Shown: positions 10,441 through 63,805 of the stretch, one piece after another
Layout of the letters: each line of letters opens with the position of its first letter
Numbering within the stretch: the stretch's first letter is position 1
Origin: Argopecten irradians
Lineage: Eukaryota > Mollusca > Bivalvia > Pectinida > Pectinidae
Direction: 5' to 3'
Length of the DNA: 64,000 nucleotides
Assembly: GCF_041381155.1 (NCBI RefSeq)
Contig: NC_091134.1
Location: 1,980,001 to 2,044,000, forward strand
Position numbers and translations under genes: made by a program
The notes under the pieces: model-generated
Seen by the model: only the letters and a program-made list of their open reading frames with translations
What the model was told of the DNA's origin: nothing
Databases searched by the model: none

Positions 10441-10500
10441 TGAATTGTGAAATAAATATTCTAGAGAAACAACTGATGTTCTGTTCTTTGATGATATGTT

Positions 10501-10928
10501 TGTAACCCTGTTCAATACTAGCCACAATATAACGTTCGGCTAGAGAGAACTCCTCTTCAGCTCGATCAGTTGAGCGTCAGATTAGTAACCCAGAGGTCCC
10601 GAGTTCGATCCCTGACAGAAGAAGGTATTAAATATATTGTGAATCCTGCACCCTGTTACGTTGGCGCCCACGTCGGGACTCGGGAATAATACTGAACAAT
10701 ACCTGTAAAGGAATCGTTGTGACCTCTGAAAACTTGATGATAAGGTGACTCCTTGAGCGGAAGAATGTAACCCTGGTCAATACTAGCCGCAATATAACGC
10801 TCGGCTTAGGAGAACTTCTATTTAGCTCGTTCGGTTGAGCGTCAGACTGGTAATCCATAATAGGTCCCGAGATCGATCCCTGGCAGAGGCGGGTATTAAA
10901 TGTATTGTCAATCCTGCACCCCGTTACA
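10501..10928 (+). mobile_element. Terminal-repeat retrotransposon in miniature (TRIM) with tRNA-like LTRs
   Basis: Two direct repeats of about 160 bp (10501-10660 and 10766-10928) start tgtaaccctg and end gttac(a/g), the TG...CA form of LTRs with short inverted ends. They are about 84% alike by eye, so the insertion is old. Two bases after the left LTR lies tggcgcccacgtcgggactc, close to a primer-binding site for tRNA-Lys. A purine-rich stretch (gagcggaaga) ends just before the right LTR. TGTT (or ATGTT) occurs on both sides as a target duplication. The interior is only about 105 bp and codes for nothing. Each LTR holds a tRNA-like block: an A-box-like cagctcgatcagttgagcg, an anticodon-arm-like part, and B-box gagttcgatccc. 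The family type (Ty3-like or other) cannot be told. The alternative is two SINE copies in tandem, which would not explain the primer-binding site or ends. Confidence 0.72.
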
Positions 10929-13700
10929 TGTTGAATGTTTTAATCGAGAGTTTTCATGTTTTATTTACAAAGATGTAATTGTTATGTGCAACAACATTTC
11001 GTCTGTTTTTCATTTTGATGATTAATACATATCTTAAGTATTATGATACTCGAAGATAGCCATGACGGAACTGTAAAAGTGTGAAAGAAATGTTATTTTA
11101 AAAATTATTTCATAACTTTGCTGCATAAAGGAGATAACTCTCAAGAATTTTATTAACTTGCTTTTAAGTATAACAAGACTACTCTCCCCTGACATTAAAT
11201 GAAAGATATAATTTTAAACATCACAGATATTTTATCTGTAAAAATAGATCTTTCAATTTGTAATGATTGATTGTCATATGTATATTTCAGTTTTATTCAG
11301 TCAATTAGTTACGAAATTTTTAGATACTTAATACTTGTCTATAAATATTACAAACACACAGGGATGTGACTTTGTGTATAATAATCAATATGTAGCGAAA
11401 CATGTTGAATCGTTTGTAACGAAACTATAAATATTCATAAGACAAAAGAAGAACGAAAGCCATTGCCTTGAATAAATATATATATCAAACATGGCCTATC
11501 ATTAAGATTTCAGCTTTCACGCGAAGAACCCTCGTATCAAGGTTATCGAAATTAGAATATAATCACAGAGTATGCACTCACCACATACATGTCACCATCA
11601 TGATCTCTGAAGTTCATGGAACAACTTTTTATCAGTGACTTACTTGAAGTTTGCATTATGCGTCGTTTTATAAAATCTGATGATAGTGGGGCCATCTTTG
11701 ATATTTATATTTCTATATTTCAAAAAACTCCGGGATCTTAAAAAATGGGTGGTTTCTTATTTACCATTGCTGTGGATACTCCATTTTGGAAATAACTGAA
11801 AACAATGAGACTAAAAAAGCATGATATTTCACGTGTATAACTTTTTAGTTTTGTGTTGGAAAAGCAGAAATACAAAATGCATGCTCCTTAAATTTTGAAA
11901 AAGAAGTTAAGTGATTGTGTGTAAAGTCCGCATATTTTAAATGAAAAAAAAATCAAAGGAGAAAATATTCATCAACGATAAATGCAGGATTTTTTTTGGG
12001 GGGTCTTATGTCAAATGAATGATATGATTTTCTAACAAGTAGCTTAGGCAGAGTTCTGTTGAACGTTCTGTAGTCATGAAAATTGTCAACTTGTTATTTA
12101 ATCAAAACTGTGTTCATAGAATAATGTCACAGTTGCAGTTTCACATTTGAACAATAGAGTAATGATTATTCATAGAAACGGCGTTGTTGAGGAAGATCAA
12201 TGTTTACCTATAAACATTATCATTATTATCTAGCCATGTAATATGACCATTTGAATTGCTTTCATTTATGGACAAGTTACTCTTTATTTATCTTATAAAT
12301 ATTTACACGATAATGCAATCATAATATAACGTATTTTTTTATTTTAATGCACGAAGATAAAGGGAAAAAAGAAAATTTTTTACCAAATTTTATTATCTAA
12401 CTCCAAAAATGTAATTCCATTTTTTTTTTTAGATTGTTGCTGTTATTTACACACTATATTTATATATATTGTATTTTCTTTTTTGATGTCATCAGGAGTT
12501 ACCGCCCATTACTTTGTATTTGTAGAGATGTCTTGTCAACATGTCACACGTACTTAGCTTATCATAGTATTCTGTCAAAAATTCAACTACCAATGTCAAC
12601 AAATATAAAAGCCTTTCTGCTATTCGATCCATTTACACATCCCAAAACAATTCGTTGAAATAAGTAAAATTACACAACGGTTTTGCAAGTGAATTATCTC
12701 AAACATTTAAATCTATATAATATTATTCAAACGCAAATTCCAGGTAGCGGTTATTTCCTCTTAGGAAATAGGTATGGAGTTTTGTATTTGACAGCAAATG
12801 AGTTTTCTCTATTGGAGTGTCAGTGTTACTCGCACTGCTTTCATAGAGACCATCTGACTATCTGATTGTCAGAAAACATTTCACTTTTGAAATTCCCAAT
12901 TAACCAGCCAATCAGAGGCCGAGTCAAAATTCTATCCTGGACTCAATTTTCTATAAATAGGGGCCATATCCAAAGCCTATTTTTCATTTAGATGGTTGTT
13001 CCCTTTATAGCACTGATCCAAATATTTGAGTTTCTTCCCTTTTAACGCTATTTGTTGTATTTCTAAAAGTCAATAAAAACGCATTTTTTTAAATTTAAGC
13101 CTTTTACTTTCAATAACAATAATTATAAATATTGATGAATTATTGAACATTAAAATAATAAATTATGTCATAGACACTCATTTATTTTACCAGTGCAGCT
13201 CCTCACATTGAATGTGATTCAACGCCTGCATTGCCGGGTAAAACATACTAAAGTAGTTTAGTCATCTATCAATTGTAATGTATCTGGTAATACTAAAAAG
13301 CAATAAATATAATACTTCACACAAGTAGATGCAGCTCCTCACGATAAAGTGAATCAATGCTTGCATAATACAACAAAATGACATCCATCATTTGTTTCGT
13401 TACAATTCACGATATTTTTTCCGGTTGTCAAAGTTCATTGTCCATAGGCATTTCGATCAGAGGCGGAAAGATATCATGGCTACAGTCCCGAGAGAAGCAC
13501 AAGTGGTGAAAACAATCCAATCTTTGTTGATCCATTATCTGAAAGTAGATCATAATTTATTTATTTCATGGTTAGCATGGTTGTATTCATCGGCAAGTGC
13601 AACGTTATTAAAAATATGTATCTTAAGTTAATAAACAAAAGGTACTTTACTATGTAATTTATTTCATTACAACTACTTTGAAACTATTGAAAAGAGAAAG
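10929..13700. other. Intergenic, no gene recognised
   Basis: AT-rich sequence between two convergent genes. A block at 12890-13010 resembles 40200-40365 (shared aggggccat and ttggttgttc stretches), an unclassified dispersed repeat. A second local feature is a partial duplication near 13196 and 13331 sharing tgcagctcctcac. No exon with matched splice sites was found. Confidence 0.5.
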
Positions 13701-33719: not shown

Positions 33720-36700
33720 TCAGTTGTTGCCTTGGAAACAGTATTGGTTGAAACACATAAAGTTATCCTCCTCTAGACACACCTTACAGGCCACCTCGTT
33801 AGAATTGGTCCGATTACCTGAAGAGAAAAAATATTGAATTTCCAACGTTATCATTTGCACAGTTCCCCTACGATTTCCTATAAACAGCAATGCTGCGGCG
33901 TGCTCATTAGTGAGTTATTTTATAGGTAGTATACTGTGGCTGAGTTCCAGAAACGTCTTTTTCAACATTGCTTCATCTTCATGATATTGTACATGTATAT
34001 GGTAATTAAAGTCAACGTTTTGTCGTATGTAATTATAATTATGATATTGTACATGTATATAATGATTAAAGTCAACGTTTTGTCGTATTTAATTATAATT
34101 ATGATATTGTACATGTATATAATGATTAAAGTCAACGTTTTGTCGTATGTAATTATAATTATGATATTGTACATGTATATAATGATTAAAGTCAACGTTT
34201 TGTCGTATTTAATTATAATTATGATATTGTACATGTATATAATGATTAAAGTCAACGTTTTGTCGTATGTAATTATAATTATGATATTGTACATGTATAT
34301 AATGATTAAAGTCAACGTTTTGTCGTATTTAATTATAATTATGATATTGTACATGTATATAATGATTAAAGTCAACGTTTTGTCGTATGTAATTATAATT
34401 ATGATATTGTACATGTATATAATGATTAAAGTCAACGTTTTGTCGTATTTAATTATAATTATGATATTGTCGTATGTAATTATAATTGTCATTATAGCCG
34501 AGCACGGTGGTGTGGTACAGCTATCTGACTATCAGTTAATTAATACAACAAAAACAGCAACAACAGCAACTTCCAGCTGCCATAAATTATATCCTTATAT
34601 GTACCAGTTACATTCATGTCAGCAATTAAATAGTGGATACAAAACCTTATGTCATGGATCAAACTCTACAGAACAAGCGTATCAAAATATTGAATTCATA
34701 GATATAGCCCAAGGACGTATATATCACTTATAAATCCTTGATATAGCCAGAATAAAAATACATATCACTAGCATCGTGGTGTTATTCCTTGGTGGTCATC
34801 GAACCGTCACAATGCTAGGCTGACAAGTAAACGAGCCACACCTTCAATCAGTCACGCGTAAGATGATAAAAAAATGGAACATGAGAAATCATCAACACTT
34901 CACCTTTGCAAAGCCATGTCCTAGCACACATAGGGTCCAATGAAGAGAATAATAAAGACCAATAGACTGTAAAAACAGCTACGTATTTAATGGTATTAAA
35001 CAACAACTATTGCATTGCTCCTTTCGGGCTAGAAGTTTATGTATTACACAGACAATATTTCTTCACATTTTTGACGTAAAATTCACTTTTTTGCCCCGGT
35101 TCACGTGAAATTCATGTGAAAAAATATTGCCTGTGTACCGATAGGAACAGACGTAATTTTGTCATTCGATTTTGAAACATTTTCTACCTTGAAATCAGGT
35201 CAATTAATAGAAAGATTAGGTAAGGTATTTCCCATTACAACTACAGGAAATTAGAATGGCAGGATCGGGTAAGGCGTGATAGACTTCAAGTAGTAAACGC
35301 GTTTTCATTCATAACTTTGATGTCGGATATTATAAAGAGTGAATACAAATAAAAAAAAATAGAGCGATTATTAATAAATAAAAGATCTTAATAAATAAAA
35401 GATCTTAATAACGTAAATTAATGTAAACTCATACTTTACACAACACTAGCAAGATACAAAAATAAAAAATATTTGCGAAGAATGAATATAGAGCGAATCT
35501 ATTTTCATTCTTCGCAAACACGTTTTATTTTTGTATCTTGCTAGTGTTGTGTAAAGAAGAGTTTTGTGTTAGTATTATTAGGTAACGTCAATTTTCGTTC
35601 TTTCGTGGAAACGAATTTTGTTTTATACATTATAGTCAATTTAATTTGCTTCATCAGCTGACCACAAATAGTTCTAAGCAAGAAATATTTTCAAAGCTCC
35701 GAACCACGCAAAAAATTATACACGACCATTTCATGTTTTACTATATGTTAGATGGTGGTCTCTAAACAGCAAACATTTTTCATAAACAGAACAAGACTTA
35801 TACAACACAGAAAAAAAATTATAAAAACAAAAAATTGTGTACAATAAAAGAACTCAAGATGAACTTAAATACGCGGTAGTATATACTAAGCGTATATCAA
35901 CTACATCACATTATAGAATACAGAACAACGAATGAAGAAGTTATTGGTAAATGTGTTCACGTAGAAAACCATTGGCAGTAGGATAACAGAAAACAAATAA
36001 TTTACTGGTAAACATGGGTGTGGTATTAGCGGGAAACAAAAATTTTTAACAGGATAGGATACCGAGTGGTTATCGGTGGGTTTAGATCTCCATGGATAAC
36101 CATTCAGGCAGGTGTACCGCAAGGTTCAATGGTGGGTGTCTTTATATTGTGTATAACGATATTAGTGAAAAGTTTTGTTTAAATGTGAAATTGTTTACTG
36201 GTGATTTTATACTCTTATAGAGAAAGACAGACAGGAATATGCAAATATTTAAAATACATATAGATTTTTTAGGAACATTTTGAGAAATGTTTAAATCCAG
36301 ATAGGTAAATCTTCTATTTTTAAGGCGGACTGAATCCATGCCTTTACATTCTGATCTGACTTTAGTATGAGGAATGTAACTAATCTTCTACAAGTATTTG
36401 ACTAATTGGTCATTTATTAACGAAAACGGATATACAACTGTAGAAGGATTATCATACTCCAAATATTTAATAGCAAAGAAAAAATACAAGATTCCTTCTT
36501 TACTTATTTTGAAGCTAGTTCCTTTCCCTTAGTGGCACATGACTTTCTACGTGTTGTTACATCCATTAACGACATCGTTTAATTCTAAAGTCAAATTTTG
36601 TGAGCACAGGTATGTGGAAATGTTGAAGATGCTCCACCGCCGACAGAGCATAAATTATATCAATCACTTGAACAATTGGTGTTTAATCGTGTATATATGT

Positions 36701-49871: not shown

Positions 49872-51905
49872 ATGTCGTCAGATTCTGAAATGTATACTCC
49901 GAAGAAGGATGACTCTCTTCGAAAGGTAATTATGCATTTTTTGAGTCAGGGACACAGTTATGTCTGTGACAGTCATCACATGATTAGATATTGACAGATA
50001 GTTTTAAATTTCAAGCAATTTTCAAGAACAGCGCTAAGTTATGTACAGGTCTTCGTTAGTCTTATCAACAAACTTTTTCATAATTTACATTGATAGTGAC
50101 AGGGACTTAGATGAAATCCATGATATTGATTATAAAAACAAACCATCTAAAAATCCTAGTTTTCCACTGATGGAAGTATAGTTACACTACCATCAGAAAC
50201 ATATTGCCACAATTTATATTTATCTAAAAATAATAATTTAAAGTAGTAAGAGAAAGACAAATGGCTATATAACAGAGGTCGACTAAAAAGGTGTTTCCAA
50301 TCTTACGTATATCTGTTTGTGTTACTTGATGTTTCTGAACTAACCAAGACTCTGAGGTGAAAAATATAGATTATTTACAGTATATTAAATAAAGGAGATA
50401 TCGATTTTGTATGATTTAGTATTTAAAAAAAACACAGGGCGCTCTTCCTTATGATTTCCATTGCACTTGTTTTTTCATTTAAATTTCTTTGTGTTACAAA
50501 GTATCATTTCCCTTACACATTTGTTTAACAATAATTTATCTAATATCGATGTCTTTATGTAAGCCACAGCTTTATATTGCACGACAAATTTTGTACCGTG
50601 AAATTCGTTTAATGCTTCATATTTATGAATACAATGTATATCGAATAAGAAAAAGTGACTCTGAAAAGGCTGTTTTCTGCATGTCACGAGTCGTGTATGA
50701 ATCTCTGTTAGGAGAGCTTTTCAGCTAAAAACTTTGAAATTGATTTGTTTAGTTTTATAAGTGGATGTATCTTTGAACATTACTGTGATTTTTTTAGATA
50801 AACAAACCAATGATGGAGAAAAAGAGAAGGGCCAGGATTAACCAGTGTCTCACGCAACTCAAGAGTCTCGTGTTGGAGGCAATGAAACGTGATGTAAGTA
50901 GTCATAAGTACATAGATTATATAGAATTACATTATTTTTGTTTGACATGTTTCTCTGGATTATCCTATCCCAGTACGATCCACAGCTATCCCTGACAATT
51001 TATTATGCCATGTGGTTTCTATAGAACTTTAGCTTTTTACTTTTAAATCAGTTTGTGGACATTCGTTATCATGTAATTCAGGGGTCAAAATATAATACAA
51101 TGGTACCGAAAAGCATCACCTCAATATTCCCATTATCGTAAAAGACGAATGGAATATTTTTTTATCATATAAAACAAGAAAATGTTGACAGTAATGTGTG
51201 CAAACTAATGAATTTAAATTCTATTTTCAGAGCGCACAAGTTTCTAAACTAGAGAAGGCGGACATCTTGGAAATGACCGTGAATTATTTACGAAACACAC
51301 AACAACAGCAACAACAATGTGTCGACTCGTCCACCGATATGAGGAGGAACAAATACAGAACGGGCTTCAACGAGTGCGCCACCGAGGTGATGCGTTACCT
51401 TGGAAACGACGAAAGAGTTACACCTGATGTCAAAACGAGGCTAAGTGATCACTTGACCAGGTGCGTTCGAGTGATGAACAGTCGCCTTGCTGAATCACGA
51501 CCTGACGGTAATGACTTTTCCTCCCGGACATACGGAGATGGTTTATCCATTGACATTCCGGTGTCTGGATCGAATTTTGGATCAGTTCCGAATCAAAACA
51601 GTAATGGCGTTTATTTGCTGAAAACCCAAAACGTGAATGCAACTATGTCGTATCAATATCAGCAGACCATGTACACAAGTCGACATAGGACTCATGATAC
51701 GTCAAAGTATCAGATCGCTTTAGACAATTCAACCATGAACGTTTCACCAGTAAGACAATCGCAACAAGACTTGAACGTCATTTCCGGTCAGCAACAACAG
51801 CATCATCCGAGACATATGAACGGTTTTCTTCATCGAAGATCACCGATAGGAAACGATAATTTGGATCAGCTCAACAATAACGAGGCTGTTTGGCGTCCAT
51901 GGTGA
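49872..51905 (+). CDS. HES/hairy-type bHLH-Orange transcriptional repressor, complete
   Basis: Three exons (49872-49925, 50798-50893, 51231-51905) join in phase 0 to 274 codons. The protein opens MSSDSEMYTPKKDDSLRK. The basic region, NKPMMEKKRRARINQ (20-34), has the proline that marks HES proteins. The helix-loop-helix ends VSKLEKADILEMTVNYLRN (54-72), followed by a six-Gln run. An Orange domain follows at about 92-128 (YRTGFNECATEVMRYLG ... LSDHLTRCV). The C-terminus is WRPW (271-274), which recruits Groucho/TLE. HES proteins are nuclear repressors, usually Notch targets, acting on N- and E-boxes. The region between the Orange domain and WRPW is low-complexity, rich in Asn, Gln, Ser and His. 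Both splice sites within the bHLH lie where vertebrate HES1-type genes have them. Exact orthology (HES1/4-like or hairy) is not resolved. The promoter contains a CSL site. Confidence 0.95.
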
Positions 51906-62644: not shown

Positions 62645-63805
62645 GCATGCTAATAAATAACAACTCTAATACGGAGGATCAAGTACGCATCAAAATTTAC
62701 TTTGTTCTATTTTGTATGCTAATTAATTACTACTCTAATACAGAGGATCAGGTATGCATCAAAGTTTACTTTGTTCTATTTTGTATGCTAATAAATTACT
62801 ACTCTAATACAGAGGATCAGGTATGCATCAAAGTTTACTTTGTTCTATTTTGTATGCTAATAAATTACTACTCTAATACAGAGGATCAGGTATGCATCAA
62901 AGTTTACTTTGTTCTATTTTGTATGCTGATAAATTACTACTCTAATACAGAGGATCAGGTACGCATCAAAGTTTACTTTTTTCTATTTTGTATGCTAACA
63001 AATTACTACTCTAACACAGTGGATCAGGTATGCATCAAAGTTTACTTTGTTCTATTTTGTATGCTAATAAATTACTACTCTAATACAGAGGATCAGGTAT
63101 GCATCAAAGTTTACTTTGTTCTATTTTGTATGCTAATAAATTACTACTCTAATACAGAGGATCAGGTATGCATCAAAGTTTACTTTGTTCTATTTTGTAT
63201 GCTAATAAATTACTACTCTAATACAGAGGATCAGGTATGCATCAAAGTTTACTTTGTTCTATTTTGTATGCTAATAAATTACTACTCTAATACAGAGGAT
63301 CAGGTATGCATCAAAGTTTACTTTGTTCTATTTTGTATGCTAATAAATTACTACTCTAATACAGAGGATCAGGTATGCATCAAAGACTTTGTTCATTTTG
63401 TATGTAATACAGAGGATCAGGTATCAAAGTTTACTTTGTTCTATTTTGTACAGAGGATCAGGTATGCATCAATGTTTACTTTGTTCTATTTTGTATGCTA
63501 ATAAATTACTACTCTAATACAGAGGATCAGGTATGCATCAAAGTTTACTTTGTTCTATTTTGTGTATGCTAATAAATTACTATTCTAATACAGAGGATCA
63601 GGTATGCATCAAAGTTTACTTTGTTCCATTTTGTATGCTAATAAATTACTACTCTAATACAGAGGATCAGGTACGCATCAAAGTTTACTTTGTTCTATTT
63701 TGTATGCTAATAAATTACTACTCTAATACAGAGGATCAGGTATGCATCAAAGTTTACTTTGTTCTATTTTTTATGCTAATAAATTACTACTCTAATACAT
63801 AGGAT
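62645..63805. repeat. 69-bp tandem array, about 17 copies, intron 1 of PhyH-like gene
   Basis: The unit is aggatcaggtatgcatcaaa, gtttactttgttctattttg, tatgctaataaattactact, ctaatacag. It repeats at 69-bp spacing, mostly near-identical, with two truncated units around 63386-63460 and diverged units at both edges. As 69 is a multiple of three, the array is open for 284 codons, which is incidental. The paralogous intron at 57580-57690 holds one diverged unit. Confidence 0.95.

What the first reader, a model, noticed from the sequence alone, without database searches (positions are those of the whole stretch)
10501..10928. Miniature LTR element whose LTRs contain a tRNA-like (Pol III promoter-like) module
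Two ~160-bp terminal repeats with TGTAAC...GTTAC(A) ends, a tRNA-Lys-type primer site, a purine tract and a 4-5-bp target duplication make a TRIM. Both LTRs carry A-box-like and B-box-like sequence with an anticodon-arm-like piece between. Cassandra TRIMs of plants carry 5S rRNA sequence in their LTRs in a similar way; a tRNA-based animal counterpart would be a new kind of LTR/SINE hybrid. It sits about 60 bp beyond the SLC1 poly(A) signal.
Basis: partly seen in the sequence, partly recalled or inferred. Interest (0 to 1): 0.75.

Follow-up and report, generated by a model that had tools for sequence, protein, structure and literature searches.

The report
Helenus-type TRIM with tRNA-like LTRs
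This is an old copy of a small, gene-less jumping element whose ends carry a tRNA-like piece, a kind described in 2024 under the name Helenus; elsewhere in the same genome one copy is fused to a larger retrotransposon with the same primer site, which points to the element's likely helper.

Summary
At 10501-10928 lies a 428-bp non-autonomous LTR element: two 160/163-bp LTRs (87% identical), a tRNA-Lys primer site, a purine tract, a 4-bp target duplication TGTT, and a degenerate tRNA-like module in both LTRs. The genome has 338 LTR-module and 147 internal-region matches at up to 3 mismatches in 50 bases, controls 0. Of 25 testable two-LTR copies 20 have exact 4-bp duplications. In 26 of 39 junctions the primer site is a perfect 21-nt complement of this genome's tRNA-Lys(TTT). 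The kind is not new: Kojima 2024 (PMC10886601) described tRNA-bearing TRIMs (Helenus), with 4-bp duplications in animals, bivalves among them. What I did not find in print is one chimeric locus: a Gypsy-type element (gag-like start, integrase in a 1448-aa frame) and a Helenus unit, joined at their shared 19-nt primer-site block. Sixteen plain copies of that Gypsy junction exist; the three recombinant junctions all lie at this locus. This suggests the helper and fits copy-choice during reverse transcription, but DNA-level recombination or an assembly error is not excluded. Pol III transcription is untested.

The parts
10497..10500 (+). left target-site duplication TGTT
   Evidence: read
10501..10660 (+). 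5' LTR, TGTAAC...GTTACG
10551..10621 (+). tRNA-like module of the 5' LTR; A-box-like 10558-10569, B-box-like 10602-10612
   Evidence: position by alignment to the young copy L003; the same module in locus L007 matches RF00005; the window copy itself does not
10661..10765 (+). internal region, 105 bp
   Evidence: a 50-mer of this region taken from a young copy is found at 147 places at up to 3 mismatches
10662..10682 (+). primer-binding site for tRNA-Lys(TTT), 19 of 21 bases; 21 of 21 in 26 of 39 junctions examined
10755..10763 (+). polypurine tract, GAGCGGAAG (GGAGGGGGAG in most other copies read)
10766..10928 (+). 3' LTR, TGTAAC...GTTACA
10816..10889 (+). tRNA-like module of the 3' LTR; A-box-like 10823-10834, B-box-like 10870-10880
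10929..10932 (+). right target-site duplication TGTT
   Evidence: read

Best explanation
It is an old, decayed copy of a Helenus-type TRIM: a short LTR retrotransposon without genes whose LTRs contain a tRNA-derived internal promoter. Most likely, RNA polymerase III starts at the tRNA-like module of the 5' LTR and reads through the element to a genomic T-run (inferred). The RNA is taken into particles of a Gypsy-type element with the same tRNA-Lys primer site (inferred; supported by one chimeric locus). Host tRNA-Lys(UUU) primes reverse transcription at the 21-nt primer site (shown as a sequence match). The purine tract primes the second strand (inferred), and the helper's integrase inserts the DNA with a 4-bp target duplication (structure shown; enzyme inferred). 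I saw no sign that this copy serves the host, but did not test it.
For: Structure and copies: 45 loci by position from 59 fetched (28 LTR-internal-LTR, 7 single LTR, 7 with three LTRs, 3 partial, two of these being the chimera). Of 25 of the 28 two-LTR copies with both ends present, 20 have exact 4-bp duplications (mean 2.35 in 1000 shuffles) and 25 of 25 end in CA. Primer site: 26 of 39 junctions are a perfect 21-nt complement of the genome's tRNA-Lys(TTT), the other 13 match at 19 or 20 of 21. tRNA module: RF00005 at 23.4 bits, E 0.015, and at 22.9 bits in L050. In 93 LTRs at distinct places the A-box score is 11 or more of 12 in 77 and the B-box score 9 or more of 11 in 79; 0 of 2000 letter shuffles of one young LTR reach both its scores. 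No TTTT from module to element end in 22 of 25 copies. Helper: at C11:5644657-5644955 a unit of Helenus internal region (105 of 105 bases as in L003) plus LTR (3 mismatches of 160) sits between two copies of a 32-bp Gypsy block that holds the primer site. Downstream lie a gag-like start, 1250 bp on, and an integrase match (PF17921) in a 1448-aa open frame. The plain Gypsy junction occurs at 16 other places, 13 of 16 with a match to the same gag start 1.18-1.27 kb downstream; 3 of 3 recombinant junctions lie at this locus; control 0.
Against: No expression or Pol III occupancy data. The tRNA matches are below Rfam's gathering score; only 2 of 20 loci scanned gave one at E 10; ARAGORN (bacterial code) finds no tRNA in 20 of 20 loci; the window copy gives no Rfam tRNA match. 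The 5' flank of the module is about as conserved between subfamilies as the module (L102: 0.94 against 0.93, only the 3' flank drops to 0.64), so conservation does not single out the promoter. ATTAAA, a possible poly(A) signal for Pol II, is present in 76 of 93 LTRs. The copies are closely alike, so the absence of TTTT counts for little more than one sequence. The helper rests on one rearranged locus.
Confidence: 0.73

Rival explanations
1. An ordinary TRIM transcribed by RNA polymerase II; the tRNA-like module is a neutral passenger and ATTAAA in the LTR serves as poly(A) signal.
For: ATTAAA in 76 of 93 LTRs; module scores below the tRNA gathering threshold.
Against: A- and B-box-like sequence in right order in most of 93 LTRs; TTTT absent from module to end in 22 of 25 copies, though these copies are so alike that they count nearly as one sequence.
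Confidence: 0.2
2. The C11 chimera arose by DNA-level recombination (for example a one-LTR circle or a neighbouring copy recombining at the primer-site block), or is an assembly error, so it says nothing about shared particles.
For: A single crossover with conversion across the 32-bp block explains both junctions of the plus-strand chimera; the locus also carries a 672-bp inverted arm at 99.1% identity.
Against: Only 19 continuous shared bases are available at the primer site, short for ordinary homologous recombination (general knowledge); shared primer site and GTTACA end fit copy-choice in a shared particle.
Confidence: 0.45
3. A tRNA-derived SINE or a tandem repeat that only looks like an LTR element.
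For: tRNA-like module; tandem arrays of LTR plus internal region exist (L092).
Against: CA ends in 25 of 25 and 4-bp duplications in 20 of 25 two-LTR copies, primer site in 39 junctions; the 7 single units are whole LTRs.
Confidence: 0.02
4. A functional or domesticated 3' element of the SLC1-like gene.
For: It lies 45 bp beyond the last AATAAA.
Against: LTRs 87% identical with scattered differences, more decayed than the other 27 two-LTR copies (92-100%); boxes weakened.
Confidence: 0.03

Closest known systems
Helenus (Kojima 2024, PMC10886601)
   Same: TRIM with tRNA-like LTRs, primer site for a tRNA 3' end (tRNA-Lys among those listed for bivalves), purine tract, 4-bp duplications in animals, solo LTRs, tandem arrays (zebrafish family), primer-site likeness to Gypsy; 51 bivalve families, scallops Argopecten, Mizuhopecten and Pecten in Table 1. 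Seen: abstract, main text to the end of the discussion, legends and tables; supplements not read.
   Different: No sequence comparison with the published families was possible. A chimeric junction with a Gypsy element, and a satellite made from the primer-site region, are not in that main text (0 hits for 'chimer', 'template switch' and 'satellite').
Cassandra (plants)
   Same: TRIM with a small-RNA-gene promoter in the LTR; long tandem arrays (abstract of PMC7215508 seen).
   Different: Carries 5S rRNA sequence; here no 5S match in the Rfam scans of the element and of 20 loci.
Ajax (nemerteans)
   Same: TRIM with small-RNA-derived LTR, 421 or 434 bp.
   Different: 5S-derived, 5-bp duplications.
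biv-TRIM (Satovic 2019, PMC6934838)
   Same: Short non-autonomous LTR element of bivalves with solo and tandem forms (part 1 of 5 and passages seen).
   Different: 202-218 bp repeats, 77-80 bp internal domain, no clear primer site; here 160 bp, 105 bp and a tRNA-Lys site. Sequences not compared.
Complex LTR insertions by template switching in Triticeae (Sabot and Schulman 2007, PMC1950507)
   Same: Fusion of two LTR retroelements attributed to abnormal template switching (part 1 of 2 seen).
   Different: The cases in the part read are fusions within one family in grasses; here a TRIM and a Gypsy-type element with unrelated LTRs, joined at the primer site.

Membership tests
Helenus | tRNA-like sequence inside both LTRs | tested here: met
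   RF00005 matches of 23.4 bits (E 0.015) and 15.6 bits (E 2.1) in the two LTRs of L007; boxes in 93 LTRs. Below gathering score; no match in the window copy
Helenus | short element, two LTRs, no genes (Kojima's range 311-1263 bp) | tested here: met
   428 bp; LTR-internal-LTR in 28 of 45 loci; a 105-bp internal region leaves no room for the retrotransposon genes
Helenus | primer site and purine tract at the ends of the internal region | tested here: met
Helenus | 4-bp target duplications (animal members) | tested here: met
   20 of 25 copies; 3 of the 28 left out for incomplete ends
Helenus | primer site like that of a Gypsy element of the host (animal members) | tested here: met
   19 identical bases shared with a Gypsy-type element found at 16 plain places; its Gypsy nature rests on PF17921 and gag-like frame at C11, clade not tested
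Helenus | sequence similarity to a published Helenus family | not testable with these tools
   Repbase and the paper's supplements were not available
Helenus / TRIMp3 | transcription by RNA polymerase III | not testable with these tools
   no transcript or occupancy data; Kojima also leaves it unproven
Cassandra | 5S rRNA sequence in the LTR | tested here: not met
   no 5S match in Rfam scans
tRNA-derived SINE | tRNA head without LTRs, moved by target-primed reverse transcription | tested here: not met
   module lies in LTR context in 45 of 45 loci; 4-bp duplications and CA ends
biv-TRIM | 202-218 bp terminal repeats, 77-80 bp internal domain | tested here: not met
   160 bp and 105 bp

The most novel reading that the evidence does not exclude
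Helenus RNA is packaged and copied together with RNA of one particular Gypsy family in this animal. The C11 chimera is the product of template switching at the shared tRNA-Lys primer site inside one particle, and so a direct physical record of the helper of a Pol III-type TRIM.
Probability: 0.4. Interest if true: 0.55.

Novelty: new member of a known kind. Interest (0 to 1): 0.38.

Why it matters
What adds to it bears on a point that paper leaves open: which autonomous element moves an animal Helenus. Kojima had primer-site likeness to Gypsy; here one Gypsy-type family, with 16 plain junctions, is physically joined to Helenus at that site. This makes co-packaging of a putative Pol III transcript by an autonomous retrotransposon directly testable. 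The primer-site region has also become a 56-bp satellite.

Tried and rejected
Rfam on the window copy and ARAGORN gave no tRNA; the window copy is decayed and ARAGORN was run with the bacterial code. Locus L105/L113 (Helenus LTR followed by foreign DNA) looked like an autonomous partner, but in the 5 kb read it is one LTR and 28 bp of internal region. At least four other LTR types with the same tRNA-Lys primer site (L093-L095, L097/L098, L099-L101, L106/L111/L112; L107 may be a fifth) were seen. For one, L097, I read C12:555300-557800, 2.6-5.1 kb downstream, and found a single ORF of at least 80 aa (112 aa, not scanned against Pfam); the others were not followed. Searches for the species by assembly size and for Argopecten assemblies did not settle the host. 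The guess of Argopecten rests on sixteen contigs with lengths or hits in the tens of Mb (C1-C16; only hits below 1 Mb seen on C17, whose length I did not see) and 846 Mb; that Argopecten has 16 chromosomes is recalled.

Considered and rejected: SINE, 5S-type TRIM, domesticated 3' element (see rivals). On checking, the 95 LTRs held the window's two LTRs twice; one search recounts 93 distinct places, and these numbers are used. Rows dropped or merged: one stray partial hit in L037; 3 of 28 two-LTR copies without both ends in the duplication count; 2 of 88 incomplete LTRs in the box count. L026/L027 share flanks, and so do L041/L042/L046/L048, so 45 loci are places, not independent insertions; without the repeats the box counts are 68 and 72 of 83.

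Full report
WHAT IS THERE. The window holds, at 10501-10928, two direct repeats of 160 and 163 bp around a 105-bp internal region. The LTRs run TGTAAC...GTTAC(G/A) and are 87.3% identical with gaps. The duplication TGTT flanks the element. The primer site starts at 10662, one base after the end of the 5' LTR. A purine-rich stretch precedes the 3' LTR. The element starts 45 bp beyond the last AATAAA of an SLC1-like gene (PF00375 in 3 of 4 exon frames tested; the last exon frame did not match on its own).

COPIES IN THE GENOME. The window lies in an 845.8-Mb genome of 1508 contigs. Counts by pattern: a 50-base stretch of the LTR module at up to 3 mismatches has 338 places and a 50-base internal stretch 147, controls 0. 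From 59 fetched loci I kept 45 places, merging those fetched more than once and dropping one stray partial hit in L037. They comprise 28 LTR-internal-LTR, 7 single LTRs, 7 with three LTRs, and 3 partial arrays, two of which are the chimera. Some share flanks and are duplicates of one insertion (L026/L027; L041/L042/L046/L048). All are best-scoring hits, so decayed copies are under-represented. Of the 28 two-LTR copies, 25 have both ends; 20 of 25 have an exact 4-bp duplication against 2.35 on shuffling, and 25 of 25 end in CA; the five without are L003, L018, L019, L030 and L047. LTR pairs are 92-100% identical in the other 27 two-LTR copies, so the window copy has the most diverged LTR pair of this set.

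PRIMER. The best-scoring tRNA genes of the genome (63 of 56,696 candidates scored) include tandem tRNA-Lys(TTT) genes, named by ARAGORN in 4 of 4 loci scanned; 30 of 30 fetched loci carry one identical 73-mer. Its 3' end with CCA is the exact complement of the first 21 bases of the primer site in 26 of 39 junctions; the other 13 match at 19 or 20 of 21; the window copy at 19.

tRNA-LIKE MODULE. In the younger copy L007 the Rfam tRNA model matches the LTR module over its full length at 23.4 bits (E 0.015 in 451 bases against 4227 families), and at 15.6 bits (E 2.1) in its other LTR; the gathering score is 29. L050 scores 22.9 bits; L007 and L050 gave the only two tRNA matches among 20 loci at E 10 in that larger search. 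ARAGORN finds none in the same 20 loci. By my reading of the alignment the anticodon position is AGU, a Thr anticodon, and the anticodon stem is broken; Kojima reports that seven bivalve families can encode a Thr tRNA. In 93 LTRs at distinct places the A-box score is 11 or more of 12 in 77 and the B-box score 9 or more of 11 in 79; 0 of 2000 letter shuffles of the L003 LTR reach both of its scores. Between subfamilies the module is kept about as well as the LTR's 5' part and better than its 3' part (L102: 0.93, 0.94, 0.64; L104: 0.86, 0.84, 0.67). Other diverged copies in that call go the other way (L041_1: module 0.87, 5' part 0.92, 3' part 1.00). So conservation is at most mild support for selection on the promoter. 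There is no TTTT from the module to the element's end in 22 of 25 copies, and the first TTTT downstream lies 9-466 bp away: a Pol III transcript would include the whole element and a genomic tail. That suits reverse transcription, because the 3' LTR is then internal to the RNA (inference).

THE HELPER. On contig C11 a Gypsy-type LTR end (..CAACCCGGTTACA, then AA) is followed by the primer site, then by the Helenus internal region (105 of 105 bases as in L003), then by a Helenus LTR (157 of 160 as in L003) whose last bases switch to the Gypsy version, then by a second primer site and a different leader. The inserted unit is bracketed by a 32-bp direct repeat of the Gypsy block ACCCGGTTACAAA plus primer site (5644657 and 5644924). 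An open gag-like start follows 1250 bp downstream (C11:5646207), and an integrase match (PF17921) lies at 5649962-5650132 in a 1448-aa open frame (150 of 2343 candidates scored). I did not read the DNA between gag start and integrase, so that both belong to one element is inferred from position and strand. The junction pattern finds 19 places: 16 plain Gypsy junctions (15 exact, 1 with a mismatch) and 3 recombinant ones, all three at this locus, control 0. The 67-aa gag start matches 1.18-1.27 kb downstream on the same strand at 13 of the 16 plain places (three of these matches hold stop codons); it does not at C14:15146862, C14:15157825 and C880:23660, and one gag match (C1:58173218) has no such junction. 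The part of the Gypsy-type LTR that I hold (405 bp) shows no similarity to the Helenus LTR beyond the last bases (local score 12 against 10 for the reversed sequence) and no GTTCGA. So helper and passenger share primer site and LTR end but, as far as read, not the promoter, as Kojima expected on general grounds. A second, inverted arm (672 bp, 99.1%) at 5642424-5643090 carries the same Gypsy-to-Helenus junction and ends in a normal Helenus LTR end, so the locus is a palindromic rearrangement. Copy-choice during reverse transcription explains the junctions simply; a crossover at DNA level with conversion of the 32-bp block does too. One locus cannot decide, and an assembly error is not excluded.

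WHAT IS KNOWN. Kojima 2024 (PMC10886601; abstract, main text to the end of the discussion, tables and legends seen) defines Helenus by tRNA-like LTRs, with 4-bp duplications and Gypsy-like primer sites in animals, 51 bivalve families, tandem arrays and solo LTRs. Every defining feature that I could test is met. About sixteen large contigs and 846 Mb would fit Argopecten (n = 16, recalled), and Argopecten irradians is in Kojima's Table 1, so this very family may already be in Repbase; this was not testable. A search for Helenus with TRIM, tRNA and LTR gave 2 papers, one of them this. A search for non-autonomous LTR elements with template switching found 35 papers and listed 15; none of the 15 titles or abstract beginnings reports a TRIM-Gypsy chimera. 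Fusion of LTR elements by template switching as such is known (PMC1950507, part 1 of 2 seen).

VERDICT. Observation confirmed; the reading as a TRIM with a tRNA-like LTR module is right; its novelty claim is not. New member of a known kind, with one unusual locus elsewhere in the genome that points to its helper.

Noticed in passing
L090 (C2:72604000-72606100) and L091 (C12:8860300-8862300): A 56-bp satellite (about 37 and 36 units in the stretches read) whose unit is the last 12 bp of the Helenus LTR plus internal bases 1-44, so the primer site is repeated in tandem; CCTGC occurs near both unit ends in the parent and may be the microhomology.
   Followed up: partly
L092 (C12:39367700-39369150); also L005, L031, L040, L041, L042, L046, L048: Tandem arrays of LTR plus internal region with a period of about 255-265 bp, like the arrays reported for Cassandra and for zebrafish Helenus.
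   Followed up: partly
C10, C561, C608, C614, C672 (L060-L089): tRNA-Lys(TTT) genes in long tandem arrays, on C608 about every 1.62 kb, with tRNA-Gln genes in pairs beside them in the 4 loci scanned; this is the tRNA that the primer site matches.
   Followed up: partly
C11:5642424-5644936 (L012, L013): Head-to-head inverted arms (672 bp, 99.1% identical) around a 1.17-kb spacer next to the Helenus-Gypsy chimera; origin of the palindrome unknown.
   Followed up: partly
L093-L095, L097/L098, L099-L101, L106/L111/L112, L107: Several further LTR types with the same tRNA-Lys primer site but other LTR ends.
   Followed up: partly
window 33936-34733 and 62647-63501: Long open frames whose translations are short tandem repeats and are probably not genes.
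   Followed up: no
window 51198-51905: A 235-aa open frame that by eye looks like a Hairy/E(spl)-type bHLH-Orange protein (recalled, not tested).
   Followed up: no
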